Of a stretch of DNA of 64,000 nt, positions 6,284 to 60,274 are shown piece by piece; within the stretch, counting starts at the first letter, position 1, and every line of letters starts with the position of its first letter. Under the pieces are notes generated by a model. The model was not told the origin of the DNA. It did not search any database and saw only the letters and a list, made by a program, of their open reading frames with translations. The DNA is taken from the NCBI GenBank assembly GCA_001600635.1, contig BCKL01000021.1, positions 310,001-374,000 on the forward strand. The letters run 5' to 3'. The translations under genes were made by a program, and so were the position numbers. This DNA is from Leucosporidium creatinivorum. Taxonomy: Eukaryota; Basidiomycota; Microbotryomycetes; Leucosporidiales; Leucosporidiaceae.

Positions 6284-8611
6284 ATGGCCCCCTCCGTGCT
6301 CCCTTACGAGCCCGCCCTCTCTTCGAACGACGCCTTTGAAGCTCTTCTCGTCTCGCTCAACCCCATCCCCAGCACACCCAAACCTCAGTGTCAGGCCGAG
6401 CAGCCCGTCTCGCACAACCCATTCTTCGATTCTCAGCGCACTCCGGAGCTTCGAGTGCACGAGGCGACCAAGAACTCGACCGCGGAGACGGCGAACCTCA
6501 CCCTCACCGACAACCTCGGCGTCACCAACGCTTCCACTCTGTCCCCGACGCTGGACCTCTTCAACGAGCTCGGATCGGTGCAGAAGGATGGAATGCGCGA
6601 GCTGCTGGAGGCGGCGTGGAAGGAGGATCCGCTCGCTACACTGAAGGTGAGCTCGGAGCTAGCCATGCAGCTCGAGAGCAGCTAGCTCACCTTGAACCCC
6701 CACTACAGATCATCTGGAGCGCTCGGTCGATCCCTCGCGGCAAGGGAGAGAAGGAAGCGTGGACCCGAGGCGTGGCCTGGCTCGCCGAGGAGCATCCTCA
6801 AACACTCCTTCGCAACCTCGAGAACGTCGTTCTGCCCGTCGACCTCATCCCGAAGAAGCGGAAGGCGGATGAGCAGGACCAGGAGTCCGACGCCGACCTG
6901 TGCGAGGTAGAGGACGAGCCTACCGAGCTCACGCCAGCTTCGGCGAGGAGTCACGGCTACTTCAAGGATCTCCTCAACCTTCTCTACCTCTCGTCGCTTC
7001 CCTCCACTTCTACGCCTACCAAGTCGGAGCTCGCCCTCACCGGCGACTACTCCCGTATCGCTGGATACGCAGTCGACGACGATTCGGCTTACGCCGGCGC
7101 TCGCAAGAAGGGCAAGGGGAGGCCCGCGACAGACACCAAGGAGGACAGGCTCGGCCAGCTCGAGTCGAAGCTCGGCGAGCGGAGTCAGCAGACCTTCCAT
7201 CGCGCCCTCAACTCGACCGTCGCGCGCATCTTCGGCCGTCAGCTCAAGGAAGACATCGACACGCTCGAGAAGGCCAAGGCGCTCCGTGAGGCGGGCAAGA
7301 AGGAGGAAGCAGTGGATGTCGAGCGCAGGATCTCTCTCGCCGCTAAGTGGGCGCCGACCGAGGGCAACTCAGACGACAAGCAGACCCGCATCGCCTCCTC
7401 CATCGCCGAGCACCTCACTCCCCTCTCCGCCGATCGCTCGACCGCTTCCCTCATCCGCACCCTCTCCATCTACCGCACCAAGTACCTCGCGCCTCTTCGC
7501 ACCCATCTTGACCTCGTCGAGTGTCACATGTCGAGCGGAGACTGGACCGGCATCAACTACTCGCGAGTTCCCTCCCTGGCGATGGATCGCTACAAAAAGC
7601 TCTTCAGCAAGCGGGACAAGGAAGGTTTTGCCGCGTACCTTCTTCGTGTAGCCGAGGGCAAGGCGAGAATCTCGGGAGCAGCTCTCACGCCGTCGTCGCT
7701 GGCTCACCAGGCGGGACACGGTCAGGCCGACAGCGCCGAAGCGCAGGTCGTCGAGGCGCAGTGGAACACCCTCGTGCAGAGCATCAAGGACGCCGGAACG
7801 CTCAGCAACTGCATCGGAGTCGCCGACGTCTCGGGTAGTATGTACAGTCCTCGCCTCAGCGATGGAACCACTCCGCTCGATTCGTCGCTTGGCCTCTCCA
7901 TCCTCCTCGCCCAGGTCGCCGAGCCGCCCTTCAACAACGCCGTGATCACCTTCTCCTACCAGCCTCAGTTCCTCGACCTCACGGGCAAGACGCTGAGGGA
8001 GCACCTCGACTACGTCAAGAGCACGGGAATAGGCTACAACACCGACTTTGCGAGGCTGATGAGGACGGTGCTGAAGAGGGCGGTCGAGGCTAAGCTGCAA
8101 CCCGAGCAGATGGTCAAGAAGATCTTCATCTTCTCGGACATGGAGTTTGATGTGAGTCGCGCCTCGAGCGTTCGACTAGCTTCTCTCGCTCATCTTTCTC
8201 TTTTCTCGGCGCTCGCAGCTCGCTCAAAGCGGCTCGCAAAACCACTACCAGACCCACCACGAGCGCGTCAAGTCCGAGTACGAGACAGCAGGCTACCCTC
8301 TCCCCGAGATGATCTACTGGAACCTCGCCGCCCATGTCGGTCGCGGCAACTCGAAGCCCGTCACGGCGCACACCGAAGGAGCGGCGCTCGTCTCGGGCTA
8401 CTCGGCTGCCATCCTCAAGGTCTTTTTGGACGGCGCCGACTTCGAGGAAGCCGCCGAGGAGGAGGAGGAGAGCTGGGAGGAGGTTGTAGGAGACAACGGC
8501 GAGACGGTCAAGGTCAAGCAGACGGGAGGGGCGAAGAAGATGGATCCGACGGCGGTGATGAGGAAGGCGATTGGGCATTCGAGCTTTGACGCGTTGAGGG
8601 TGTATGACTGA
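6284..8611 (+). CDS. DUF2828 protein with vWA-like domain
   Basis: Three exons (6284-6646, 6709-8151, 8219-8611) join in frame to give 732 aa. The N-terminal half is helical, with the motif GYFKDLLNLL typical of DUF2828. The C-terminal half is von Willebrand A-like, with the metal-site (MIDAS) signature DVSGSM near residue 515 and a second strand KIFIFSDMEFD. The family resembles TROVE/Ro-type proteins in combining a helical-repeat half with a vWA half; its function in fungi is not established. The product has no signal peptide or membrane helix, so it should be cytosolic or nuclear. A short acidic insertion (EEAAEEEEESWEE) lies before the end. The start MAPSVLPYEP follows an ACC-ATG context. 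Both introns are about 65 nt. Confidence 0.88.
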
Positions 8612-27769: not shown

Positions 27770-30601
27770 ATGCGCTCCGTTCTCGCTGTCGCTGCTCTGT
27801 TAGCTGCTACCGGTGCTGAAGCCCTCAACGTCCATGGTTACGTCGATGCGAACCGCAACGCTTCGCTTGTGCCGGAGGTCCTGGCGCAGAACTACTCGTA
27901 CATTGTCGTGAGTATCAAGCTGGGAGCGTCCGAGATCGACCGCTGACCTTCTACTACTCGTCCAGGTCGGAGGAGGTAACACTGGAGCAGCTCTCGCCGC
28001 CAGGCTTAGCGAGGACTCGAGCAAGACTGTCCTGCTCGTCGAAGCCGGCCGAAGGCGAGTTCGGTGGGAGTACAAGGCGGGCGCGAGCTAACACTTACAC
28101 GTTTAGCCAAATCGACAACCCTGGAGTAAGCGTACCAGGTCTCGCCGGCTCTACTTTCCTTTCCGAGGTCGATTGGGCCTTTTCGACGACCCCTCAAGCC
28201 AACGCTCAAGGTCGTAGCGTGTAGGCCAGAGCCTCCTCGCATTTTGTTTGGTCCATCACTGAGACCGTCTTCTCCTACAGCTACTGGCCTCGCGGCAAGG
28301 TGAGCTTCAAAGGCGCAACCTCGACTTTCGGCGCGCTGACAACCTCGGCTCGCAGATGGTCGGCGGCTCGTCTGGTCTCAACTTCCTCGCCTACACTCGC
28401 GGCCACAAGAGCGAGTACGCCTCTATCGCCTGGCTCTCCCGCGACGCCTCGTGGTCCTGGCGCAGCCTCCTCAGCTACTTCAAGAAGTCCGAATCGTTCC
28501 ACGCTCCTGGTCCCAACACCGAGAACGTGACGAGGCAGTACGACGCCTCCGTTCACGGTACCTCTGGTCCCGTCGCCGTCGGATACCCGCCCTATATCTC
28601 GGTGCAGTTCGCCAGCGGCTTCTTCGATGGACTCGAACAGGAAGGAGTGCCCGTCGACGTCGACCTCAACGATGGCGAGTCGGGGGGAGTTTCGTGGTCT
28701 GCTTCGACTCAGACGCCCGAAAACGTTCGTGTGACTAGTGATACTGCCTACAGTGAGCTCCCGAGTTCTGTAGTCGACGAGGGCGCCTCGCTGATTCTCC
28801 CTCTGCAGTCGTCCCCATCATCGCCGGCCGCACCAACCTCGTCGTCCTCACCTCCGCTCAAGCGACCAAGTTGACCTTCGCCGCTAAGAAGGTGGGCCAG
28901 GACGTCGTCGCCAACGGTGTCAACTTTGTCGCTACCGGCAAGAAGACCGTCAACCTTCATGNTGTGAGTCCGCGCCTTTCTGTTCGAACTATAAGAGCTG
29001 ACCTCGCTCTCTACAGACGGCCACCGCCGAGGTCATCCTCTCGGCTGGTTCTATCCAGACGCCTCAGCTTCTTGAGCTCTCTGGAGGTGAGTCTCGACTG
29101 GTGCATTACTCTCGCCAGTCGCTGACTCCGTCTACCTACAGTTGGTAACCCTGCGATCATCAACCCCCGTAAGCTGTTTCCCTCTCTCGCCGTTCTCGTC
29201 GAACTGACGCTCTGGCTCGCAGTCGGCATCTCCACCGTCGTCAACCTCCCGGGCGTCGGCGCCAACTTGCAGGATCACCCCGCTGTCGTCGTCGTCGAGA
29301 AGCTCAAGCCTGGATACGAGACTCTTGATGGACTCGCTGGCGATCGTCTTAACCAGGTAAGTATACTGGATCTTGCATCTCGCTGCTCGGCGAACGAAAA
29401 GCTCGCGCTCACGTCCTGTCCTCCACAGGCCCTCGCCGACTACGCTGCTGGATCTGGACGTACGTTTTCGCCCTTTTGCGCGATACGTATGAGGACGAAG
29501 CTGATCCTTGCGTGGTTTCGCAGTCCTCACTCAAGAGCTCTCGACCCTCGCTTATATGACCGGCAAGCAGTTCCTCAACGCCGACGATCAAAAGCAGGTG
29601 AGCATCTGTTCGTCTATGCTTTCGCTTGCTTTGTACTGACATACAAGACAGGCCGCCAAGCTCGCTCTTCAACCCTCGGCGCAGCTGCCGGCCAACCAAC
29701 AGGCTCAGCAGCTACTGCAGATCGCGGCAGGTGCACCCATCATGGAGCTACTTGCCATCAACACCTAGTACGTCACGCTCGGTAGTCTTCTGAGAGACCA
29801 GCTGTGTAGGTCTCCAGCGAGAGCCACGTGACTGACACTTCTTCCCCTCTCCACAGCTTCGGCGCAACCGCTGGCGCTCAGAACGAGTCCTACATCTCTC
29901 TCGCTGCTTGCCTGCAGCACTCGTTCTCCCGTGGAAGCATTGTAGGTCACTCTCGAGCTCTCCGACGCTGCCCGTTAACCCTCTCGCCTTCCTCAGCACA
30001 TCTCTTCTGCCGACCCTCTCGCCTCGCCAGCCATCGATCCGTCGTATCTTCAGCACCCCGTCGACAAGTTCCTGCTCACCAAGGCAGGTCAGTTCCTGCG
30101 CCAGCTGGCTACCAACTTGAGCCTTTCGGACGTCGTCGATTCGGAGAAGGAGCCCGGAGTCGCGGTGCAGTCGCAAGCTGACTGGGAAAGCTGGGTAGAA
30201 GGCGCAGTTCGCACCGAGTGAGTCGTTCGATGATCTTGTGTGCGAAATGACAGCTAACACACCTCCACCAAGGTACCATCCCGTCGGAACCGCCTCCATG
30301 GCGCTTCAGAACGAGTCGGGCGTGGTGAACTCGCATCTTCAGGTCTACGGTGCGCTGCTCATTCGCTTGTCTCGAGATCGCGAGCTGACGCTTGCTTCTT
30401 CTTCTAGGAACTGCCAACGTCCGAGTCGCCGACCTCTCCATCCTCCCGGTTCACGTCTCGGCGCACCCCCAATCCCTCGCCTGTTCGTCACCTCGCTCTT
30501 CCTCTCGGCCTCGCTTTCTCGGTTTCCGACCTTTACTAATGCTGCTCCTTCCCGATTCAGATGCCATCGCTGAGAAAGCAGCCGATTTGATTCGGGGTTG
30601 A
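27770..30601 (+). CDS. Secreted GMC oxidoreductase, copy 1
   Basis: The gene has about 16 short introns and encodes near 600 aa. The signal peptide is MRSVLAVAALLAATGAEA. The FAD-binding fold follows as VGGGNTGAALAARLSED with LLVEAG. The two GMC signatures are present: YWPRGKMVGGSSGLNFLAY and LSAGSIQTPQLLELSGVGN. The C-terminal active-site region has EYHPVGTASM and HVSAHPQS, giving a His/His pair as in glucose oxidase and aryl-alcohol oxidase. Such enzymes oxidise alcohols or sugars outside the cell and make H2O2; substrate is unknown. The second intron uses a GC donor (CGAAG|GCGAGT), where copy 2 has GT. A block at 28790-29247 is nearly identical to copy 2, introns included. One ambiguous base lies at 28962. 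Confidence 0.93.
28790..29247 (+). repeat. Near-identical block shared with GMC copy 2 (partner 32203-32661)
   Basis: By eye, about 458 bp match the partner with roughly six substitutions and one 1-bp indel, including two introns that are identical. Sequence outside is clearly diverged. This fits recent gene conversion; local mis-assembly is an alternative. Confidence 0.85.
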
Positions 30602-31053: not shown

Positions 31054-33832
31054 ATGAGGTCCACCCTCCTGCTCGCTTCGGCGGCTCTCTTCCTCCAGGC
31101 CGACGCTCGTGTCTCGGGCTACGTCGATACTGCTTCGTCCCAGCTCCCTGCTGTACTTAAGCAGTCCTACGACTTCATCGTCGTGAGTTGCATTTTTCCA
31201 CGCCTCGCGAGAAACATGAAGGGCGAGAGGAGCTGACCAACTCGACTCCTTCGCTACACTTCTACTGCACAGGTCGGCGGCGGCAACACTGGACTGGCGG
31301 TTGCATCTCGTTTGAGTGAGAACCGAAAGAAGAATGTGCTTGTCATCGAAGCTGGAACCAGGTAAGTTCGAGTTCCCCTCGCCCTGCTCGGCGCCGAAGC
31401 TGACCTCGACGTTTTCGACATCTTCACAGCCAGGTCAACAACACGGGCGTCGTTATCCCTGCTCAGTCGGGCTCTACCTTCCTGAGTGCCATCGACTGGG
31501 CCTTCTACACTGCTCCTCAGAAGAAGGCGAACAACCGCAAGATGTGAGTCGCCCTCGCCGAGATGGTTGCTACATCCTAAACGAGCTGCTAGCTGACTAA
31601 CGACACTGCTCACAGCTACTGGCCTCGTGGAAAGGTGAGTCGCGGTGAGCCTCAGCGCGGAACTTCGGCGCTAACTTTCCTCCTCGCAGATGCTCGGCGG
31701 CTCGTCTGGTCTCAACTTCCTCGCTTGGACTCGTCCTAACGAGGCCGACTTCACTTCGATCGTCAACATGGCTGGCCCCGGCGCCTCGGCTTGGTCCTGG
31801 AAGATGATGCTCGCCTACTTCAAGAAGGTTCGGCGCTGCCTCGTCTTTCTCTTGACGCCTCTCTCTGACTCGCTTCCGTACCCTCAGTCCGAGTCCTACA
31901 CCTCTCCTTGCCCCAACAACCAGAAGGTCATGCGCGTCGACAGTCCCAACCACCACGGCCGCGCGCAGAGCACCGCCCTCGCGGTGTCGGCTTCGTACCC
32001 TCCCTACGTCAGTTCGCAATTCGTCTCGTTCTACAAGGGCTTGAGGGAACTTGGCGTCCCAGTCGACCAAGACTTGGGCGACGGCATTGGCGAGGGCGTG
32101 TCCTACTCGGCTTCCTCGATGGATCCCGTTCACCGCACTCGCGAGACGAGCGACACGGCTTACAGTGAGCCGATTTCGCTCTATAGCTCTCGTGATACTC
32201 TTGCTGATTCTCCCTCTGCAGTCGTCCCCATCATCGCCGGCCGCACCAACCTCGTCGTCCTCACCTCAGCTCAAGCCACCAAGTTGACCCTCGCCGCTAA
32301 GAAGGTGGGCCAGGACGTCGTCGCCAACGGTGTCAACTTTGTCGCTACCGGCAAGAAGACCGTCAACCTTCATGTTGTGAGTCCGCGCCTTTCTGTTCGA
32401 ACTATAAGAGCTGACCTCGCTCTCTACAGACGGCCACCGCCGAGGTCATCCTCTCGGCTGGTTCTATCCAGACGCCTCAGCTTCTTGAGCTCTCTGGAGG
32501 TGAGTCTCGACTGGTGCATTACTCTCGCCAGTCGCTGACTCCGTCTACCTACAGTTGGTAACCCCGCNATCATCAACCCCCGTAAGCTGTCTCCTTCTCT
32601 CGCCGTTCTCGTCGAACTGACGCTCTGCGCTCGCAGTCGGCATCTCCACCGTCGTCAACCTTCCTGGAGTCGGAGCCAACCTTCAAGACCACCCTGGTGT
32701 CCCCGTCATCGAGACCCTCAAGCCTGGCTACCAGTCTCTCGACAACCTCAGCGGCGCTGCTCTCGCTACTGCCGCCGGGGAGTACGCGGTTGGACAGGGC
32801 ATCCTCACTCAAGAACTTTCCGTTCTCGCTTACCTCAAGGGATCTTCCTTCCTCACCAAGGCCGAGCAGGCTCAGGTGAGCTCTTTCGATCCGGCGTCGA
32901 CTTCGGCGCCGGTGCCGAGCGGACGCTGACTTCGACACTCTCGCAGGCTCTCGCTCTCTCCAAGACTCCAAGCCCCACTCTCCCCAAGAAGCAACAGGCT
33001 CAGATGATTGCCAACCTACAGGCTGGATCTCCCATCATCGAGCTACTTCCGATCAACCTTTAGCACGTCGCGCTCGGCGGACGAAAAAAAAAAAGCGAAC
33101 GCTGACCTCTCCTTACCTCTCTACAGCTTCGGCGAAACCGCTGGCGCCAAGAACGAGTCCTACATCTCCCTTGCCGCCTGCCTCCAGCACTCGTTCTCCC
33201 GTGGAACCGTTGTAAGTTGATGCTCGGCTCGCTTCGGCTTCGAAGCCGCAGTCCTAAGCTGACCTTCTCGCCTCCTCTGTAGCACATCACTTCCGCCAAC
33301 CCTCTGACGCCCCCCAAAATGGACCCCGCCTACTTGACCCATCCCTACGACCTCTTCATCCTCTCCAAGGCCACTCAATTCCTTCGCAAGGTCGCTCAGA
33401 AGACGAGTCTTTCGGCTTTCATCAAATCTGAGGCCGAGCCTGGGCCTAGCGTGAAGACTCAGGGCCAGTGGGACGAGTACGTCCGCGAGGCAATTCGCAC
33501 CGAGTACCACCCTATCGGAACAGCCTCGATGATGCCTCGCGCCGAGAAGGGCGTCGTTACCCCTCGGCTCAAGGTCTACGGAACCACCAACATTCGCGTC
33601 GCCGATCTTTCCATCCTCCCTCTTCACGTCGCCACTCATGTACGTCTCTCTGCTCCTCGGCGAACGAACCCTAGCTGATCTCGGCGATCGTTCTCCTCCC
33701 GTTCGCAGCCTCAAACCGTCGCTTGTACGTCGTCATCTCTCTTCCGAAACTTTGCTGTGCTGATCGCATTGCCTCACAGACGCCATCGGAGAGAAGGCCG
33801 CCGCCATGATCCTCGCCGACCACCAAAACTGA
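31054..33832 (+). CDS. Secreted GMC oxidoreductase, copy 2
   Basis: This tandem paralogue starts 452 bp after copy 1, with the same intron layout. It has a signal peptide (MRSTLLLASAALFLQADA), the FAD motif VGGGNTGLAVASRLSEN with IEAG, GMC signatures YWPRGKMLGGSSGLNFLAW and LSAGSIQTPQLLELSGVGN, and active-site motifs EYHPIGTASM and HVATHPQT (His/His). The product ends AAAMILADHQN. The part between 32203 and 32661 is almost the same as in copy 1, whereas neighbouring exons differ at many residues (DHPGVPVIETLKPGY against DHPAVVVVEKLKPGY). An ambiguous base lies at 32568, inside this block. Predicted role is extracellular oxidation of an alcohol or sugar with O2. Confidence 0.93.
32203..32661 (+). 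repeat. Near-identical block shared with GMC copy 1 (partner 28790-29247)
   Basis: This is the partner of the block in copy 1. It begins in the last bases of an intron and ends inside an exon (VVNL), so its edges do not follow exon borders, as expected of a conversion tract. Confidence 0.85.
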
Positions 33833-37209: not shown

Positions 37210-40200
37210 TCAGAAGAGCATATAGTTCTGCGCCAGCGGCAGTTTGGTCGCCGGTCCGACGATGCAGTGCTCGCCGTCTGCTTCCACCTGTAATAGAGTA
37301 ATAGTTCAGCTCAGCGCCCCCTCAATCTCGCCAGCACGAGCGACTCGGCCGTCGCCGAGCGTCCCTCGTCGCGAAGGCGACAAGCTCGGCGCTCCAGCAG
37401 GCGCTTCGATGCGGACGAGAAGCACAGGGGAGCGAGCTCACCCTGTAGGACTCGGGATCCACGGTAATCTTGGGCTTGTACGAGTTATTCTTCATGTCCT
37501 TCTTGCCGATATTGCGGCAGTTCTTGACGGGCACGGCCTTCTTCTTGAGGTTGTAGCTCGCGATGGTGCCTTCAGATGCAAGGAGAAGGTGTCAACAAGC
37601 TACTTTGAGGAACCAGAGTAAGGGGCAGCGCTCACCGGTTGAGATGGAGAGCTCCGAGACGAAGAGTAGCGAGTTGAGGGCGGCGACGTCGGGGTAGGCG
37701 CCCCACATTGGACGACCGATGACTGGCTGGACAGTGGGAATACTGGCGTTGGCGTCTCCGATCTGCAGGCGAGAGGAGAAAGGTCAGTCTCGGCGATTCG
37801 AGGCACCTTGACCCAGCCTCGGCAGCGAACGAGGAGCTCACGTTTGCCCATGCGATGACACCACCCTTGATGACCGATTCTGGGCGCACGCCGAAGTTGG
37901 CGGGCGTCCACAGGACAAGGTCGGCGAGCTTGCCGACCGCGACGTCTCCCAGGACGTGCGAGAAGCCGTGAGTGATGGCGCTGACGATGAGAGAAAGTCA
38001 GACGAGAGCGGAAGGAGAGATAGAAAAGGACGCACGGGTTGATGGTGTACTTGGCGATGTACCTCTGCGAGCGGCGAACGAAGGCAGGCTATGAGCTCTC
38101 GGCACTCAGCTCAACGTCGGGAAAGGAGCCGACTCACCTTGACCCTCTCGTTGTCGCATCCCTCCTTCTCACCCTCCAGCGGTCCAGTGAACTCCTTCAT
38201 CTTGCTCGCCGTCCTCCACGTGCGGGAGATGACCTCTCCGATTCGGCCCATGGCTTGAGCATCCGAGGAGATCATCGAGATGGCGCCCTTGTCCTGTAGC
38301 ATAGCGTCGAGAGGTCAGTGATGAGGATGGAGCAGGGAGCGAATGTGAGGACGCACGAGGAGCACATCCTCGGCGGCCACCGTCTCGGCGCGAATACGCG
38401 ATTCGGCGAAGGCGATGTCCTCGGCTGTAGGGTCGCAGGTCAGCTTCCGGTAGCATCGTTAAGAGGTAGTACTACTCACGAATCGAGCGGTCGAGGTGGT
38501 GGCAGACCATCAGCATCTGCGAGAGGCGCGATGTCAGCGAGGTAAGTCGGCTCGGCTCGAGGGAGACAGCAGCTCACATCAAGGTGCTCGTCAAGCGTGT
38601 TGACGCAGTAAGGTCGCGTAGGGTTGGTCGAGCTGGGCAGAACGTTCTCGTGGCCCGAGACGACGATAATGTCGGGAGCGTGTCCTCCTCTGCGCGGGGC
38701 AACTCAAGGTCAGCTCGTCGGCCGAGAAGCGGAAAGCGCGGGAGACGGCGTACCCAGCTCCCTCAGTGTGGTATGTATGAATCGTCCGACCAGCAAAAGC
38801 AGCGATCGTATCCTCGACGAAGCCCGACTCGTTGAGCGTGTCGGTGTGAATGTTGACCTGGATATCGTACTCGTCGCCGACCTTGAGGGCCGTATCGATG
38901 GTAGCGGGGGTCGTTCCCCAGTCCTACACGGCGATCCTCGTCAGCTCTTATTTCTCGCGTGCGGAGACGGGGGCCAACCTCGTGAAGCTTCAACCCAGCC
39001 GCGCCGAACCGAATCTGATCGACGAGACCGGCGGGTCCACTGTCGTTACCTTTGCCGGTGAAGAGGAGATTGAGAGGTACAGTGTCGGTAGCGGCCATCA
39101 TGGTGTGCATGTAGGTCTGCGAAGGGGTGCAAGTCGTGGCGTTGGAGGAGGCGGTGGGGCCAGTTCCGCCGCCGATGAGGGTGGTCTGCAGACAAGTCAA
39201 GTCAGTTAAAAGGTAACTCTGGCAGGCAAGTGAGAGAAGCGAACCGTTCCAGATGCGAGAGCCTGCAGTGGAGAGGTAGATCAGCTTAGCTCGAGCGAAC
39301 CCTTCGGCGAAAGCTCACCTCGGTCCAAAGTTGCGGGCAGATGTAGTGCACTGGAGGACTCAGCGGTCAGCGAGTCTGTTTCGTAGTTTTTGAGCGTCCA
39401 TAACTCACCATGCGCGTCGATAGCACCGGCGGTAATGATGAGCTTCTCGCCGGCGACGACCTCGGTGTTGACTCCAACAATCATGCCCGGCGTGACTCCC
39501 TCCATGACATCAGGGTTACCTCCCTTCCCGATACCGACAATGTAGCCCTTCTTGATACCAATGTCGGCCTGTCGAGGGGCGTGGATGGTCAGCTTGCATC
39601 GGAGGAGGAGGGCTCGGTGAACCCTCACCTTGTAGATGCCGTCCCAATCGATGATGAGTGCGTTGGTGATGACGAGATCGAGAGTCTTCGAATCGGGAAG
39701 ACCAGTAGCTTGTCCCATGCCCTCGCGAATGACCTTGCCTGCGACGGAGAGGGGATCAGCTCCGCTCCGAGCTCAAAAGACAACGACTCGAAACTCACCG
39801 CCGCCAAACTTGAGCTCATCCCCATACACCGTCTTATCATCCTCGACCTCAATCCACAACTCCGTATCTCCCAGCCTAACCCTATCGCCCTTTGTCGGTC
39901 CATACATACTCTTATAGGTCTCACGACTGAGAGTCTCTCCTCCACTAGTCGACACCACCGCGCCCTTTTGCTCCTCATGCCCAAAGCCCTTCTCAATCAG
40001 CCTGCGCAGACATTCGTCCCTCTGCGCCGAGGAAGCCATCTCCGAAGCGGCCGAGTTGACGAGGAAGCTGCCGCCCGAGACGACTTGCTTGCCGGCGATG
40101 TCGACGAGGGTGACGGTTTTGGTGTCTCCGGGCTCGAAGCGGACGGCGGTACCGGCGGCGATGTCGAGACGGCGGAAGAAGGAGAGGGTGCGGTCGAACT

Positions 40201-41050
40201 TGAGCGCGCGGTTGACCTCGGTGAAGTGGTAGTGAGAGCCGACCTGTTCTTCCCAGACTGGTTAGCCATGGTCGGGGTGAGATGAAGTGCTCGACTGACT
40301 TGAATGGGACGATCTCCAGTGTTGGTAACCTTGACCTTGACCCGCTGCCGGCCGACGTTGATGGGAATCGGCGAATCCTTCTTGACGACGACGGCTCCTG
40401 GCAGTTCTTCGAGCTTGAGGTCCTCGTCTCCTCCGTTGAAGGTACCTTCCTCAGGAATGGGAAGGAAGGAGCCGTACAGTGCGAGAGTGAGATCTCCCTG
40501 CACGGCGGCGATGGGATCATGGCTGCCGAGGAGCGAGAGGTCAGCTTGCACTGGCGCCTCCGGTCTTGAGCCAGACTCACACTGTGACGAGGAAAACTCC
40601 ATCCGGGAATGCTCCCTCCACTTGAATCTCATGCAGCAGCGCTGGGACGGTCTGCGAAAGGTTGAAGATCAGAAGTGGGGCAGGGGAGCAGCGAACGGCT
40701 CGATACGCACCGGGAGGACTTGAGCTCGGCCGAGGATCTTCTTGCCTGTTATCAGAACATGTTAGCTGCCTGCCACCGGCGCAAGAAGCTGTGGTTTGCC
40801 CTCTGGCAGCCCGGAGACGCGTGCTCCGCCTTCGCCGCGCTCGGACAAAGCTCGGTCGAAAGTACTTACCGATGGCCATGAGCTCTGCTACAGAGTGATT
40901 TCCATCCCGAATGAGCTCTTGTAGAACCGAAGCGATCAAACCCGTCGCTTCGCTGAGGTTCAGGCGGACCCCACGAGCCAAACGGCGCTGAGCCAACGAG
41001 CCGACGTTGCTGAGGAGGATGCGGTCGATCTCCCGAGGTAGAAGATGCAT
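37210..41050 (-). CDS. Urease, single-chain fungal type
   Basis: A full-length urease of roughly 835 aa in many exons on minus. It fuses the gamma ([13 protein letters not shown], from 41050), beta ([20 protein letters not shown] onward) and alpha parts in the order usual for fungi and plants. Nickel-site features are all present: the HxH motif in [15 protein letters not shown], the lysine that becomes carbamylated in [24 protein letters not shown], and the active-site flap MLMVCHHLD with its Cys and His. The end is [10 protein letters not shown]. The enzyme hydrolyses urea to ammonia and carbamate in the cytosol and needs accessory proteins that are not in this window. It is divergent from the phytanoyl-CoA-dioxygenase-like gene, with only 259 bp between starts. 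Confidence 0.97.
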
Positions 41051-41309: not shown

Positions 41310-42840
41310 ATGCCGTTCCGCTTGACCCCCGAGCAGAAGATCAAGGTACGCTTTGCATGTGAATTGTCAGCTCTGAGCGGCCAAGCTCCCTGCTCGAGAA
41401 CAGCGACAGTTAACGCCCGCCTCATCCGCGCACAGTTCGAACAGGACGGCTGCCTCGTCATCAAAGGCTTCATTCCTAAGGCGACTACCCAACAGCTTTT
41501 GGATAGGTCTAAAGAGCTGCTCCGCGATTTCTCGCTCGAGGGCCACCCTTTGACGGTCTTTTCGACGAGCGCCGAGGAGAAGCATGTCGGGGACGACTAC
41601 TTCCTCAACAGCGGGGACAAGGTGAGTCTGATGATGATGTAGCCTTTGACGAACGCTCTATACCGCTGAGCCAGCACCCCTCGTGCGCGAGACGACCGGC
41701 AGCAGCTGGGTTGAGCTGAGGGCTTTGCTAATTCCCTCCTGCTCTTTCGGCGCCCTCGCACGACAGATCCGCTTCTTCTTCGAAGGTGGAGCATTCTCAG
41801 ACGGCAAGCTCAACCGGCCAAAGGAGCTGGCTATCAACAAGGTGATTTTCCGTCGTCGATTTGCCAAGTAGCAGGTTCGGCCGAGCTGACTCGTTCATCG
41901 CGCAGATCGGACACTCGCTACACACGGAAGATGATGCGTTCAAGGACTTTACTCTGCATAACGAAGACATTCAGAACCTCGCTAAGGAGCTTGAGTTCCA
42001 CCAGGATCCTAGGGGTGAGTCCTGCTCGGCGCTGCTCGGCGCTGCTCGGCGCTGCTCGGCGCTGCTCGGCGCTGGCTCACTCGCTGCTTCGCCATGTCCA
42101 TCTTTGCCTATGAACTAGCTCGCTGATCTCAAGTGCCCTCCATCTCGCAGTCATCCAGAGCATGATCATCTGCAAGCAGGCAGTGAGTGATGACCTCCCT
42201 TCGCCGAACTCTCGGTGGAGAAGGGCGCCGAAATCTCGCTGAGCCGTTGTGCGCCCTTGTAGGAAGTTGGCGGAGCTGTCAACTCTCACGACGACTCGAC
42301 CTTCCTCTACTCCAACCCTCTCTCTGCGCTTGGGTTCTGGTTCGCCCTGGAGGACGCCACGCCAACGAACGGCTGCCTCTCCTTCGTCCCCGGTTCGCAC
42401 AAGGTCAATCGGATTCACTCGAGGTTGGAGCGAGTCGAGGGAGGAGGGACGGAGATCAAGAAGATACCGTTGAAGGAGGGTGAGGAGGTGGCCAAGCTGC
42501 CAGATTGGGATGGGGAGGGGATTGATTGGGTCGCTGCTCCTTGCGAGGCGGGAGACCTCGTCCTCATCCATGGCTCGGTCATCCACCGCTCAGAGGCCAA
42601 CCTTTCGCAGAAGTCGAGGTTCATCTATACTGTGAGTGCGCTCGAGCTTGCCGTAGGCTTCCAGACGCTGATCTTTCCATCCTCAGTTCCACATGATTGA
42701 AGGCTCGGCCGAATGGGACGAGAAGAACTGGTGCGCTCTGTTGCCTCACTGCGTCGAGTTGTAGGATGCTCGCTGACTTCTCTCACCTATGCAGGCTCCA
42801 GCCGACACCTGGCGTACCCTTCACCAAGCTCTTTGGGTAG
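41310..42840 (+). CDS. Phytanoyl-CoA dioxygenase (PhyH/PHYHD1-like) Fe(II)/2-oxoglutarate enzyme
   Basis: Eight exons (41310-41345, 41436-41621, 41767-41841, 41906-42014, 42151-42182, 42263-42631, 42687-42730, 42795-42840) give 298 aa with phases closed. The start matches the family (LTPEQKIK then FEQDGCLVIKGF). The iron ligands are visible as H-x-D in VNSHDDSTFLY and the distal His in LIHGSVIHRSEANLS, with the 2-oxoglutarate-binding Arg in the following SRFIY. PHYHD1-type enzymes are non-peroxisomal hydroxylases of unknown substrate. No PTS1 is present (the end is FTKLFG), although a PTS2 was not ruled out. Intron 4 contains a tandem 10-bp repeat. Confidence 0.9.
42022..42073 (+). repeat. 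Tandem 10-bp repeat (GCTGCTCGGC), five copies, inside an intron
   Basis: Five head-to-tail copies, the first lacking one base, lie just after the donor of PhyH-like intron 4 (42015-42150). The unit contains CTCGGC, and each junction creates the CTCGGCG word that recurs in non-coding DNA across the window. Confidence 0.9.
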
Positions 42841-55498: not shown

Positions 55499-55932
55499 AT
55501 GACCGACCTCCGACGCGCGAAGCTCAGCCGCTCCTTCTCCTCCTCCGTCAGCCCGCTTCGTCGCGGCGTACCATCTTCTCGACTTGCGACACCACCAACA
55601 GCTCCAGACCCGTCGCTCAGAGCTGCTGTACTCTCTCCTTCGCTCGTCTTAGCGCGCCAATCGCTCCTCGTGGACTCGGATCCAGCAGCTCTCGCTCGGG
55701 TCGATACAGCAGGTGAGAGACAGCTCCTAGGAGCAGCTTGTATCTCGATATAACTAGCACTGACCCGTCGGCTGTCGTACAGCTGCACCTAACAAACTCC
55801 GACGCCCTCTCCCGTTCCCGCACTGGCTCCCTCTCGTTTCGCTCAGCAGCAAAAGGGTCAGTCGTCAACGCGAGCTCCTGGTCGACTACATAAGCTCTTC
55901 AGCACGCCGCGCGACCCTCCTTCCTTGCTAGG
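55499..55932 (+). CDS. Possible 5' exons of the downstream glycosyltransferase gene, or a separate small gene
   Basis: An ATG-led open frame (MTDLRRAKLSRSFSSSVSP) runs to 55712. It joins, through a typical intron (GTGAGA donor, CTGACC branch, CAG acceptor at 55782), to APNKLRRPLPFPHWLPLV. It ends at a TAG near 55932 unless a further intron with donor GTCAGT near 55853 is used. If so, the frame can be carried toward the exon at 56193, where the long glycosyltransferase frame starts without an ATG. The minus strand is also open here and is a possible alternative. Which is right cannot be settled by eye. Confidence 0.3.
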
Positions 55933-56192
55933 ACACCTACAGGAAGAGCTGCTGGCGCGGCAGGCTCTCGCTTGTTTGCGGTGCTTGCGGAGTCCGGAGG
56001 AAAGCTGCTGGAGAGCAGCGGAGCAATAGCAGACATCAGCCCTCACCAACTGAGCAGCTTGGCTCGGCTCGGACCTCTACACGACCTCTCAGGAGCAGTC
56101 TTTGCGTGACGGAGGAGCTACTGGCTCTGGAGCTCCAGACAGCTCAACAACGGTGCAGAACAACAGCTGACTGACCCTATTCTATCAAACAG

Positions 56193-59100
56193 CTCCCTAA
56201 TTCTACTTTACTATTTTACCAACCCCCAATCGCCCATCCTGGCGCCCCTCCGCTCGAGCGACTCGCGGCATCCCTCCCGAACCAGCTCTCGCGGTTCGCT
56301 GCACGAGGCAGAGTACAGCCCTCCTCTCGCGTCGCCTCCCTCCAACTTCTTCACCACCCTTGGCGCTCCTCCACCAAGCTACGCCTCCTCCTCGTCGGCC
56401 TACACAGCGCCGCTCTCTCCGCCGAGCCGGTCGAGGAGCGTACCATCCCTCTCCAACCTCTCCTTCACCAGCGTGCAGCCACCGCCGGCATGGCCTCCCG
56501 CCGCTAACGAGGATCGCCCGCATCTGTATAGCCGACACTCAGCGACCTCTGTGCCGCGAGCAGACGAGTTCCAGCCACAGCTCCCCGTCTCGGACCTCTT
56601 CGACGACTACGAAGTCGACCAGGGATCAGGAGATGAAGCGCTCGAATTTCGTCGCCGGAGGAGATCATCTTCAGCAAGAGCGGCGGCACCCATCGCCGTT
56701 CCGCTAGCAGGCCTCGGCTCCATCCCCTCAAATCTCCACCGACGAACGACCGAGCAAAAAATGCCGAGAGCTCGTAGAAGCAGCAATACTGCAGAAGAGT
56801 CTCTCGCTCAAGCGGTGCGCTCCCTATCACTCTGTTGAGCGAATCCTCGCTGACCGATAGTATTCTCAGCCGACCCTCCCCACCGCCCGTTCGCCAGCAT
56901 CCCTCCCGACCTCACGACTCTGGTCGCTGGTCTTCCTCTTCCTCCAATCTCTCTCCGTCATCCCATCCCTCATCGGCTTCTTCTACGCCGTCCACCGCTT
57001 CTACAACGCCCCACCACACCTCGTCTCCGCCGCTTCGACATGGGACGACAGCGGTTCAGCAGTCGGCGTCACCGAAAGCCGAAGCACTCGCCTCGACTGG
57101 TTCATCGCGGGGATGTGGGCGCTCGCATGCGCCTACTTCAGTCACTCGCTCGCCAAGGGACTTCTTCGACGCTGGCTCGTCTACTACTCTCTCCTCCCGA
57201 CTTTCATCCGCGTCGTCAGCCTACAAGCCATCTGCTGGCCTCTCACCGTCACCACTCATCGACTGCTTACCTTCGACCAACCCGTTGCGGCATGGCTCAT
57301 CTGCGCTACAACGGCCGCCATCTCGGTGAGCTCAATCTGAGCCGCGCGAATCGCTCACTCGCTGACTTCCTCGCGCCCTCAGAACGTCATTCAGATCTGG
57401 GTCACGAGCAACATAGTCGAACGCAAGGATCGTCGAGGGCAACAACGGTGGCAGATCCTCTCCGTCGTCGTCGGCGCCGTGCTCGGACCCGGAGTTCGAA
57501 CGGAAAAGTTCCGCAAGAGCGAGCGAGTGCTGAGCTGGAAGAAGGTGCTCTGGGGAACGGTAGCGCCGTTCGCTCTGCTGGGATGGGTGACGACCAACGC
57601 TCTGCTGTGGCAGCAGTTCGCGGCGAGGTACAAGGGTGGAGGAGGAGTGAGCCTGGGAGGGCCGAAGCTCAACCACGTCGTCGGAGTGGGAGGGATGCAG
57701 GGGCTCACCCTCGTCGACCTCGACCGTCAAGCCGACGTTCGCATCGTCATCCTCGTCACCTCATCATGGACGAACCGCTCCCGCACCAACCGCAACACCT
57801 TCCGCCAATCCTCGGTTCTCCTCATCCCTTCCTCCTCCACCTCCATCTCCATCACCTACCGCTTCCTTCTCGGCTCGGCACCTTCTCCTCAAACGGCGGC
57901 GAAGGCGGGCCCAGGCATCGAAGCCGAAGCAAGCGAGTTTGGCGACATGCTCCTCGTGCCGGCGCACGATGGCTACGCCGATCTGAGCAGGAAGATCTAC
58001 GAGGGATGGAAATGGGCGGGACAGCTCGATGTCGACTATGTGTTCAAGACGGATGATGATATCCTGTTGAGGATGGACATTCTCGCCAAGGAATTTGTCG
58101 CGCTCGGTCGGCGCAAGGAGTACTGGCAAGGGTTCGCTTACTGGTGAGTCGATTGCTTCTCTGTAGATGAGGATCAATCGCTGACTCCATCTCATGCGCA
58201 CACAGGGAGATCCCCGCCATCAAGGATGCCTCGAACAAGAACGCCGACTTTGCCTACGAGCTCTCCTCCTTCCCTCCCTACACCGCCGGCGCCCTCCACA
58301 TCCTCTCTCGCGATCTCGTCTCGCTCATCGCCCCTCCCGACGCCTCTCGCCTCTTCGTCATGAACGAGGACCAGAACCTCGGACTCTGGCTCTACCCTTC
58401 TGGCATCCGACCCATCCACGACCGTCGCATTCAGCAGGCGCAAGTCTGCGAGAACGACATGGTCGCCAAGCACTTCGGCGGGCAGTACAAGGAGCCCAAC
58501 GGGATCGGACCTCGCGAGATGTACCTCAACATCATCACCGGCCGCAAGCAATGCGAGGGCTTTCTCCAGCGATGGTGCGGAGTCTGCTACTCGTCCTGCC
58601 GCTCGCGCGACAACCATTGGCGCGACTGGGGATTCGCCTGCGACGAGATTAAGGGCGCTACTCTCTCCAATCGACCTTCCTCCGCTATCGCTACCCTCGA
58701 GGCGCCCGTCAAGACCCCCGCCGAGCCCTTCATCATGGGCAGCGCCGACGACCCTTGGGTCATTCCCGGCCTCCTCTCGCGCCACACCTCGCCTTTCTCC
58801 CACTCGGACGACTGGCACCTCCTCCATATGCTCTGCTGGACCACCGGCGAGGAGACGTTCCAGGAGCGACACTACCAGGCGCTTGAGACAATCTGGGCGC
58901 ATGAGCCGAGGGCAATCCTCTTCATGATGTCGACGTCGTTGCCCGAGGAATTCTTCGAGACATATACGAAGCATGGCTATGCTATCCACGTCGTTCGGAT
59001 TGGAGGAGCCGAGCTGCTACAGAGAGGATGGTTCTTGGGACCGCAGAGTGAGAGGTGGTTGACCGAGTGGGATCAATGGGCGAAGGGACCCAACTTGTGA

Positions 59101-60274
59101 GTTCATGGCGACGATCTACGCTCAAGCGCTCCGCTAATGATTCTTCTCGCTCTACAGCTACTCCCATCTCACCGACTACCTCCGCTACCTCTTCCTCTTC
59201 AAGTTCGGCGGAACCTGTGAGCTTCGTTTCCACGCGATCGAAAACTGTACTGACCCTCATAACGACATAGACCTCGACATGGACGCGCCATGGGTCCGCT
59301 CGCCGCCCAACAGCAATCTCGAGTTCATCGGCGCCGACTACGCGACCCTCGCCTCCGACCTCGACTGGACGCTCGACGAGGACGGCCTCTACCTCGCTCC
59401 TGGCGTGATGCGCTTCCGCAAAGGATGGACCCTCTTCAAGGACATCCTCGAGCAAGCCTTCTCCGCCACCTACCGCGCCGACTGCTTCAACTGTGTCGGC
59501 CCTCGCGCCATCACCCTCGGCGTCCGTCCTCGCCGCCGTCAACTCGAGCTCGCCGGCTTCACCATCGTCCCCTCCCATATCCTCTACCCCAAGAACTGGA
59601 TCACCTCCCACGAGCTCGTCAAGACTCTTCCACCAGGTCAAGCCGCCCTCGAGCTCGCCAAGATGGTCGAAACGTCCTGGTCGATCCACCTCTTCGGCAA
59701 GATGACCAACCATCTGCGCATCCAAAAGGGCAGCATCATCGGCGAGGCGTTCGATACCTTCTCCCTCGGCATTCCTCGTCGAGTAGGCTACCTCTCCACC
59801 TCGGACCGCGAGCTCGGCAAACCCTCTCTCGGGCAAGGACTCGAGCTTCGGGCGCCCAAGGTGTACCAGTACCGCCCGAGGTTATCGCTCATCGCCGAAG
59901 AGGTCAAGAACCTCGACCTCATCGGCTCGGTCGACGGTCGGTTCGATGGACTGGACCTCATCTTCGTCCGAGGAGCGAGGTCACCGAGGGTCGAGAAGGC
60001 CGAGGTGCGGGTCACTACTCGGCTAGGAGGGAAGGTCGCCTGGGCATCGTCGTCCTCGAGGCTACCGGGGCGCTCGCAGGCGGGAGATGGGGAGGTCAGC
60101 GGCGCGACCGAGCTGGTCATTTCGCTCGAGGATGCGACCCTGAGGGACTTGAACGCCGTGTTGGGATCGTTGAGGCTGGTGTCGGGTGGTAAAGGGTGGA
60201 AGGGCGATGAGCTTAGTATCAAGGTATCGTTTGGGGAGGAGAAGGCGGAAGCTGTGGTCGTCGTAGATGTATAG
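56193..60274 (+). CDS. Membrane-anchored double glycosyltransferase: GT31-like plus GT32-like fusion (5' end incomplete)
   Basis: Six exons (56193-56814, 56861-57325, 57383-58143, 58206-59096, 59158-59216, 59271-60274) join in phase into at least 1266 aa. The first 220 residues are Ser/Pro-rich and probably cytosolic. Five or so hydrophobic segments follow (LVFLFLQSLSVIPSLIGFFY, WFIAGMWALACAYFSHSLA, IRVVSLQAICWPLTV, AAWLICATTAAISNVIQIWV, VLWGTVAPFALLGWVTTNAL). A GT31-like domain comes next, with DVDYVFKTDDDILLRMD as the metal-binding DxD site and MNEDQNLGLWLYPSG downstream. The C-terminal third is GT32-like, with YLFLFKFGGTYLDMDAPWV (DxD) and NCVGPRAITLGV. Both catalytic motifs look intact, so one Golgi-type protein may add two sugars. 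No ATG lies in frame before 56761, so the true start is in an upstream exon. Confidence 0.85.

What the first reader, a model, noticed from the sequence alone, without database searches (positions are those of the whole stretch)
56193..60274. One polypeptide with two glycosyltransferase domains (GT31-like then GT32-like) on a multi-helix anchor
Both DxD sites (FKTDDDILLRMD and FGGTYLDMD) lie in a single reading frame whose five intron phases all close. GT31 and GT32 enzymes are usually separate, single-anchor Golgi proteins. A fusion suggests coupled transfer of two sugars and may belong to a lineage-specific glycan.
Basis: partly seen in the sequence, partly recalled or inferred. Interest (0 to 1): 0.75.

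Follow-up and report, generated by a model that had tools for sequence, protein, structure and literature searches.

The report
Eos1-anchored two-enzyme sugar transferase gene
One fungal-type gene appears to encode a single membrane protein that joins an Eos1-like membrane domain to two different sugar-adding enzyme domains, which may add two sugars one after the other to a surface glycan.

Summary
The core observation holds. Five GT-AG introns (55, 57, 62, 61, 54 nt) close into one frame ending at 60274. Pfam finds both enzyme domains above curated cut-offs: GT31 Galactosyl_T (8.7e-20) and GT32-type Gly_transf_sug (1.6e-6).

The architecture is EOS1 - GT31 - GT32 plus an unassigned C-terminal stretch. 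Exon 3 joins EOS1 to GT31 and exon 4 joins GT31 to GT32, without an in-frame stop.

The start at 56193 is not supported: the open frame has no ATG before 56761.

Likely working: both domains lie in the Golgi/ER lumen; GT31 adds a beta-galactose, then GT32 an alpha-linked sugar. Published Cryptococcus work assigns two such consecutive steps to separate proteins, Ggt2 (GT31) and Cgm1 (GT139, GT32-like). Topology, substrates, linkage, expression and lineage remain inferred or untested. No relative was found in the viral and prokaryotic collections on hand; no fungal collection could be searched.

New variant of a known kind (two-domain glycosyltransferases such as GT31+GT7 chondroitin synthases).

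The parts
56761..56814 (+). Exon 1 from the first ATG of the open frame (coding may extend upstream without an ATG)
56110..56760 (+).
56870..57325 (+). Exon 2: strongest hydrophobic segment (about 56927-56983) and first part of EOS1
57383..58143 (+). Exon 3: end of EOS1 and first half of GT31 including the DDD motif, no in-frame stop
58206..59096 (+). Exon 4: second half of GT31 and N-terminal part of GT32, no in-frame stop
59158..59216 (+). Exon 5: GT32 stretch YSHLTDYLRY...FGGT leading into the DxD
59271..60274 (+). Exon 6: GT32 DxD, rest of GT32, C-terminal stretch, stop codon
57092..57613 (+). EOS1 domain PF12326 (interrupted by intron 2)
   Evidence: searches (2.7e-39, 135.2 bits, cut-off 23; 5.7e-40), coordinates
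57830..58422 (+). GT31 Galactosyl_T PF01762 match (interrupted by intron 3)
   Evidence: searches (8.7e-20; Beta-1,3-galactosyltransferase 6, 7.8e-15), coordinates
58043..58078 (+). GT31 DxD-type motif FKTDDDILLRMD
   Evidence: DDD aligned with DDD of B3GALT6
58363..58383 (+). GT31 ED motif NEDQNLG, aligned with SEDVSLG of B3GALT6
59053..59305 (+). GT32-type DXD domain PF04488 match (interrupted by introns 4 and 5)
   Evidence: (1.6e-6, 29.2 bits, cut-off 23), coordinates
59273..59284 (+). LDMD, the GT32 DxD (the Y codon of YLDMD is split by intron 5)
59417..59740 (+). Gb3_synth PF04572-like stretch (alpha 1,4-glycosyltransferase conserved region), below the curated cut-off
   Evidence: (6.6e-4, 20.2 bits, cut-off 22.3), coordinates
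59888..60271 (+). C-terminal strand-rich stretch of unassigned family
   Evidence: mean pLDDT 63.4, pTM 0.60; 0 Pfam families at E<=1 for 59843-60271; 0 PDB matches at E<=0.001

Best explanation
The gene encodes one integral membrane protein of the early secretory pathway. An Eos1-type multi-span anchor places two catalytic domains in the lumen: an inverting GT31 domain that adds a beta-linked galactose, followed by a retaining GT32-type domain that adds an alpha-linked sugar (most likely mannose or galactose, at O-4 of that beta-galactose). The two sites would work in sequence on one acceptor, building X-alpha-Gal-beta on a polysaccharide side chain or a glycolipid head group. Shown here: the single frame, the three domain matches, and the presence of the acidic motifs. 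Inferred: topology, compartment, sugars, linkages and the order of action.
For: Three Pfam families above cut-off, in order, in one frame, with exons 3 and 4 bridging the domain borders. The GT31 part aligns with solved B3GALT6 (7.8e-15) and B3GALT5 (1.9e-8), with the DDD and ED positions of B3GALT6 matched. The GT32 part passes PF04488 and resembles PF04572, named by Pfam alpha 1,4-glycosyltransferase conserved region, though below its cut-off. The basic stretches between the hydrophobic segments fit a cytosolic side there and lumenal enzymes. In C. [quoted passage not shown] The Ggt2 clade is reported from Pucciniomycetes and Tremellomycetes.
Against: No activity, transcript or relative was seen. 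The GT32 subfamily is weakly placed: PF04488 covers 46 residues, PF04572 is sub-threshold, and the only PDB sequence hit at E<=10 is an antibody chain at 0.49. Cgm1 is in GT139, not GT32, and I had no Cgm1 or Ggt2 sequence to compare. B3GALT6 itself is reported absent from Dikarya, so the best solved match is a distant one and not an orthologue. Topology is soft: the segment I leave out (412-430, mean hydropathy 1.13) scores almost the same as two that I count (442-460, 1.18; 312-330, 1.20); counting it would turn the enzymes to the cytosol. Ggt2 showed no activity in vitro. What EOS1 does in such a fusion is unexplained.
Confidence: 0.5

Rival explanations
1. The protein acts on glycosphingolipids: the GT31 half is of the Ggt1 type (beta-1,6-galactosyl transfer to mannosyl-inositolphosphoceramide) and the GT32 half adds the next mannose, making the basidiomycete lipid head group.
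For: Ggt1 is described as the GT31 enzyme of this lipid pathway and as widely distributed in Basidiomycota. The Cgm1 authors note that these lipid structures closely resemble the GXMGal side chain and that Cgm2 may serve them. Ggt1 has an unknown domain besides its GT31 domain (Figure 1 legend), a partial parallel.
Against: The published scheme of Ggt1 shows no second glycosyltransferase domain (legend). The best solved match is a beta-1,3 enzyme, though distant. No Ggt1 sequence was available here.
Confidence: 0.22
2. Only one of the two catalytic domains is active; the other serves structure or binding, as reported for partner proteins of chondroitin synthases.
For: CHPF and CHPF2 have both GT domains but are reported to play primarily a stabilising role (passages).
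Against: Both DxD motifs and the GT31 ED motif are present here; in CHPF and CHPF2 the donor-binding residues are reported as not conserved.
Confidence: 0.15
3. Two or three neighbouring genes (EOS1, GT31, GT32) are read as one by mistake.
For: No transcript data. ATGs of the coding frame lie between the domains: 57695 (MQGLTLVDL, before GT31) and, in exon 4, MYLNIITGR and MGSADDPWV (one search list; positions by arithmetic on the exons).
Against: Exons 3 and 4 run through the domain borders without a stop, and the GT31 match itself straddles intron 3.
Confidence: 0.06

Closest known systems
C. neoformans Ggt2 (GT31) and Cgm1 (GT139, GT32-like)
   Same: One GT31 domain and one GT32-like GT-A domain, assigned to two consecutive steps (beta-Gal, then alpha-1,4-Man) of the GXMGal side chain
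   Different: Two separate genes; Ggt2 is predicted to have one transmembrane region; no EOS1 domain is mentioned in the sections that I read; orthology not tested
Chondroitin synthases CHSY1/CHSY3 (GT31 + GT7)
   Same: N-terminal GT31 and a second, C-terminal GT domain in one polypeptide with two activities (passages)
   Different: The second domain is inverting GT7, not GT32; they make a repeating polymer; absence of an EOS1 domain is recalled
Eos1 (PF12326)
   Same: The membrane region here matches the profile from 2 to 163 of 163
   Different: Yeast Eos1 is recalled as a stand-alone ER membrane protein without a catalytic domain; [quoted passage not shown]
A4GALT-type GT32 (PF04488 followed by PF04572; pairing recalled)
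   Same: Order of the two profiles
   Different: PF04572 is below its cut-off here; sugar specificity unknown

Membership tests
GT31 (Galactosyl_T, PF01762) | Profile match above the curated cut-off | tested here: met
   71.8 bits against 23, profile positions 14-194 of 195
GT31 (Galactosyl_T, PF01762) | DDD and ED acidic motifs | tested here: met
   KTDDDILLR and NEDQNLG align with the DDD and SEDVSLG of B3GALT6; that these are the catalytic motifs is recalled
GT31 (Galactosyl_T, PF01762) | Inverting transfer of galactose or a related sugar | not testable with these tools
   needs an assay
GT32 (Gly_transf_sug, PF04488) | Profile match above the curated cut-off with a DxD | tested here: met
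   29.2 bits against 23, profile 41-83 of 93, LDMD present
GT32, A4GALT type (Gb3_synth, PF04572) | Profile match above the curated cut-off | tested here: not met
   20.2 bits against 22.3, E 6.6e-4
GT139 (Cgm1) | Falls in the Cgm clade | not testable with these tools
   no Cgm sequence in the collections offered
GT139 (Cgm1) | Spacing of donor-site and metal-binding residues stated for Cgm1 (D179, R182, D195, D197, H318) | tested here: inconclusive
   D-R-DxD spacing is the same here (D944, R947, D960, D962 of the open frame), but the candidate His (1097) is 135 after the second D against 121 in Cgm1; the D-R-DxD part is also stated to be partly shared with a GT32 enzyme
EOS1 (PF12326) | Profile match over the whole domain, with hydrophobic segments | tested here: met
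   135.2 bits against 23, profile 2-163 of 163; hydropathy peaks
EOS1 (PF12326) | Role in N-glycosylation | not testable with these tools
   needs genetics
Ggt1 or Ggt2 clade of fungal GT31 | Position in a GT31 tree | not testable with these tools
   no fungal GT31 sequences on hand
Two-domain glycosyltransferases (CHSY type) | Two GT domains in one polypeptide | tested here: met
   domains and motifs in one frame; transcript and activity not tested

The most novel reading that the evidence does not exclude
An Eos1-anchored bifunctional enzyme in which two consecutive steps of a basidiomycete-type surface glycan (beta-Gal, then alpha-1,4-Man or Gal) are fused into one chain, with EOS1 serving as a membrane scaffold for Golgi or ER glycosyltransferases. 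By gene-fusion logic this would also suggest a general role for the poorly understood Eos1 family: holding or handling glycosyltransferases.
Probability: 0.35. Interest if true: 0.75.

Novelty: new variant of a known kind. Interest (0 to 1): 0.5.

Why it matters
If the fusion is real, it gives a gene-fusion ('Rosetta stone') argument that Eos1, known mainly by phenotype, works next to Golgi or ER glycosyltransferases. It also predicts that a GT31 and a GT32-type enzyme act on the same acceptor. Both predictions can be tested with recombinant halves. The published beta-1,3-galactosyltransferase candidate Ggt2 showed no activity when expressed alone in bacteria; a natural fusion with the next enzyme might be a better-behaved system.

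Tried and rejected
Own-genome search: none held for this window. Rfam at gathering thresholds: 0 matches in the window (4227 families). Relatives by single-sequence search, which reaches close relatives only: in viral contigs 1 and 11 stretches matched a pattern and 0 were confirmed; in genome contigs 2 matched and 0 were confirmed. These are viral and prokaryotic collections, so this says nothing about fungi. NCBIfam: 0 families at E<=1. PDB by sequence: nothing meaningful for the GT32 half (one hit at E<=10, an antibody chain, 0.49) or the EOS1 region (one hit at E<=1, 0.078).

I submitted the contiguous reading 59159-60271, which retains intron 5 in frame, without an alignment; mean pLDDT 33.6, useless. 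The C-terminal stretch 59888-60271 gave mean pLDDT 63.4, strand-rich; Foldseek against PDB gave 1518 matches at E<=10 and 0 at E<=0.001, the best at 7.6e-3, so no family is claimed. A likeness to cadherin-like repeats was an impression of mine and is not supported.

Start codon: I considered an upstream exon joined at the acceptor before 56193, and a CTG start near 56239. Neither has support; composition and codon scores are mixed. The codon-score ORF list was trained on this gene, so its ranking of this gene is circular. The in-frame flags are plain coordinates modulo three and hold only for exon 1; I corrected one ATG position for this reason (57695, not 57583).

Papers: ten searches. 'Eos1' with 'galactosyltransferase': 0 papers. 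'Eos1' with 'glycosyltransferase' and 'Basidiomycota': 0. Both were whole-word searches, so papers that use only the plurals would be missed. Six phrases for GT31 with GT32 or for multi-domain enzymes: 5 papers, none whose listing presents such a fusion; I looked into one of the five. 'Bifunctional glycosyltransferase' and the like with GT31 and fungi: 0 at three of four terms. The other searches returned capped lists. The library is open-licence PMC only, and no proteome database was searched, so the fusion may already be annotated elsewhere.
Full report
What is in the sequence. On the + strand, a first exon ending at 56814 and exons 56870-57325, 57383-58143, 58206-59096, 59158-59216 and 59271-60274 join through five GT-AG introns of 55, 57, 62, 61 and 54 nt into one frame that ends at the stop codon at 60272-60274. 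The intron phases are 0, 0, 2, 2 and 1. All 5 of 5 introns hold CTGAC or CTAAT upstream of the acceptor, as seen in the printout. From the first ATG of the open frame (56761) the protein has 1074 residues. The frame is open further upstream to 56110 and rich in Ser and Pro, but has no ATG there. Composition does not settle whether that part is coding: in-frame third-position GC is 0.75 for 56239-56530, as in exons 2 and 3, but 0.56 for 56530-56814, and codon scores are mostly negative, with another frame higher at 56350-56499. I do not accept 56193 as a start and leave the true start unresolved.

What the domains are. Pfam reports four families at E<=10 for the 1074-residue protein: EOS1 PF12326 (2.7e-39, residues 93-247, profile 2-163 of 163), Galactosyl_T PF01762 (8.7e-20, residues 320-496), Gly_transf_sug PF04488 (1.6e-6, residues 707-752) and Gb3_synth PF04572 (6.6e-4, residues 790-897). 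The first three pass their curated cut-offs; the fourth does not (20.2 against 22.3 bits). A scan of a 480-residue N-terminal piece, upstream stretch included, returned EOS1 alone at 5.7e-40.

One polypeptide or several. The EOS1 match ends and the GT31 match begins within exon 3; the GT31 match ends and the PF04488 match begins within exon 4; the GT31 match itself crosses intron 3. Neither exon has an in-frame stop. Separate genes would need starts inside continuous coding sequence. ATGs of the coding frame do exist at such places (57695 before GT31; MYLNIITGR and MGSADDPWV in exon 4; one search list), so transcript data are still wanted.

Catalytic residues. In a phmmer alignment with solved Beta-1,3-galactosyltransferase 6 (7.8e-15), the DDD of FKTDDDILLRMD and the ED of NEDQNLG align with DDD and SEDVSLG. 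Against this, a survey of fungal sphingolipid proteins reports B3GALT6 as absent from Dikarya (passage), so the match is distant and should not be read as orthology. In the GT32 half, NFYSHLTDYLRYLFLFKFGGTYLDMD keeps the spacing stated for Cgm1 between D179, R182, D195 and D197: here D944, R947, D960 and D962 of the open frame. The candidate for Cgm1's metal-binding H318 (121 after the second D) would be H1097, 135 after it, so that part is not matched in spacing. Several of these positions are stated to be shared between Cgm1 and a GT32 enzyme, so they speak for a working GT-A site, not for a subfamily.

Topology. A 19-residue Kyte-Doolittle scan of the open frame gives eight peaks at 1.1 or more (subtract 217 for numbering from the ATG): 255-273 (2.09), 374-392 (1.66), 338-356 (1.42), 191-209 (1.21), 532-550 (1.21), 312-330 (1.20), 442-460 (1.18) and 412-430 (1.13). 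I count five as membrane spans (255-273, 312-330, 338-356, 374-392, 442-460). I leave out 191-209, which lies in the Ser/Pro-rich stretch, 532-550, which lies in GT31, and 412-430, which lies between two basic stretches and holds charged residues. The scores do not separate the groups, so this is judgement. Five spans from a cytosolic N-terminus put both enzymes in the lumen; six would put them in the cytosol.

How it most likely works. In C. neoformans, the side chains of the capsule polysaccharide GXMGal start with a beta-1,3-galactose assigned to the GT31 protein Ggt2 by gene disruption, though no activity was detected with the bacterially made protein. Cgm1 then adds alpha-1,4-mannose to beta-galactose, shown in vitro. 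Cgm1 has limited homology to GT32 and was placed in a new family, GT139. Its authors add that the basidiomycete lipid head group closely resembles that side chain. A natural fusion of a GT31 with a GT32-type domain therefore fits a two-step machine that makes X-alpha-Gal-beta, X being mannose or galactose. A4GALT, recalled, also makes an alpha-1,4 bond on beta-galactose. I put this general reading at about 0.5 and cannot separate polysaccharide from lipid acceptors. Ggt1, the lipid enzyme, also carries an unknown domain besides GT31, which keeps that rival alive.

Comparison and novelty. Two-domain polypeptides with an N-terminal GT31 are known: CHSY1 and CHSY3 combine GT31 and GT7 (passages). 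EXT and LARGE proteins are further examples of two GT domains in one chain (recalled). What is unusual is the pair GT31 with GT32, and the EOS1 domain. In ten paper searches I saw no description of it; two asked directly for Eos1 with galactosyltransferase or with glycosyltransferase and Basidiomycota and held 0 papers each, as whole words. Proteome databases could not be searched, so the architecture may already be annotated, and conservation is unknown. I rate it a new variant of a known kind.

What failed. No relatives could be fetched, the model of the GT32 half is worthless, and the C-terminal strand-rich stretch (mean pLDDT 63.4) has no significant match.

Papers, what I saw: PMC12493134 (abstract and outline, Results part 1 of 3, structure section, Discussion, passages); PMC11150766 (abstract and outline, Results part 1 of 2, section 3.7, Discussion); passages only of PMC5922974, PMC13161914, PMC6785544, PMC2797761, PMC12628781 and PMC12748766. 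All other papers were seen as search listings only.

The check corrected one ATG position and brought out the soft topology and the B3GALT6 statement more fully; the single-frame architecture rests on neither.

Noticed in passing
59217-59270: Intron 5 is 54 nt, a multiple of three, and has no in-frame stop (stop-free ORF 59141-60274). If retained it would insert 18 residues directly before the GT32 DxD, so splicing could in principle switch that domain off.
   Followed up: no
59888-60271: The C-terminal stretch after GT32 is predicted strand-rich with a short helix at modest confidence and matches no Pfam family at E<=1 and no PDB fold at E<=0.001.
   Followed up: partly
6340-8586: A 749-residue open frame carries DUF2828 (8.6e-85) and DUF7788 (1.7e-38).
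   Followed up: no
39284-40261 (- strand): Urease: beta-subunit and alpha N-terminal domains in the open frame 39776-40261; the neighbouring frame 39284-39772 may continue it (not scanned).
   Followed up: no
28263-28871 and 31675-32535: GMC oxidoreductase fragment at 31675-32535 (1.6e-8); the open frame 28263-28871 holds a similar GGSSGLN stretch, perhaps a second copy (not scanned).
   Followed up: no
42263-42697: Phytanoyl-CoA dioxygenase (PhyH) match, 2.6e-28.
   Followed up: no
55499-55753: An ATG-started open frame (MTDLRRAKL...) upstream of the gene might be a small separate gene or an upstream exon; not resolved.
   Followed up: partly
PMC5922974, Rhodosporidium toruloides RTO4_12670: A B3GALT1-like gene (beta-1,3-galactosyltransferase) is listed among lipid accumulation mutants of a red yeast (passage). 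Whether it is related to this gene is unknown.
   Followed up: no
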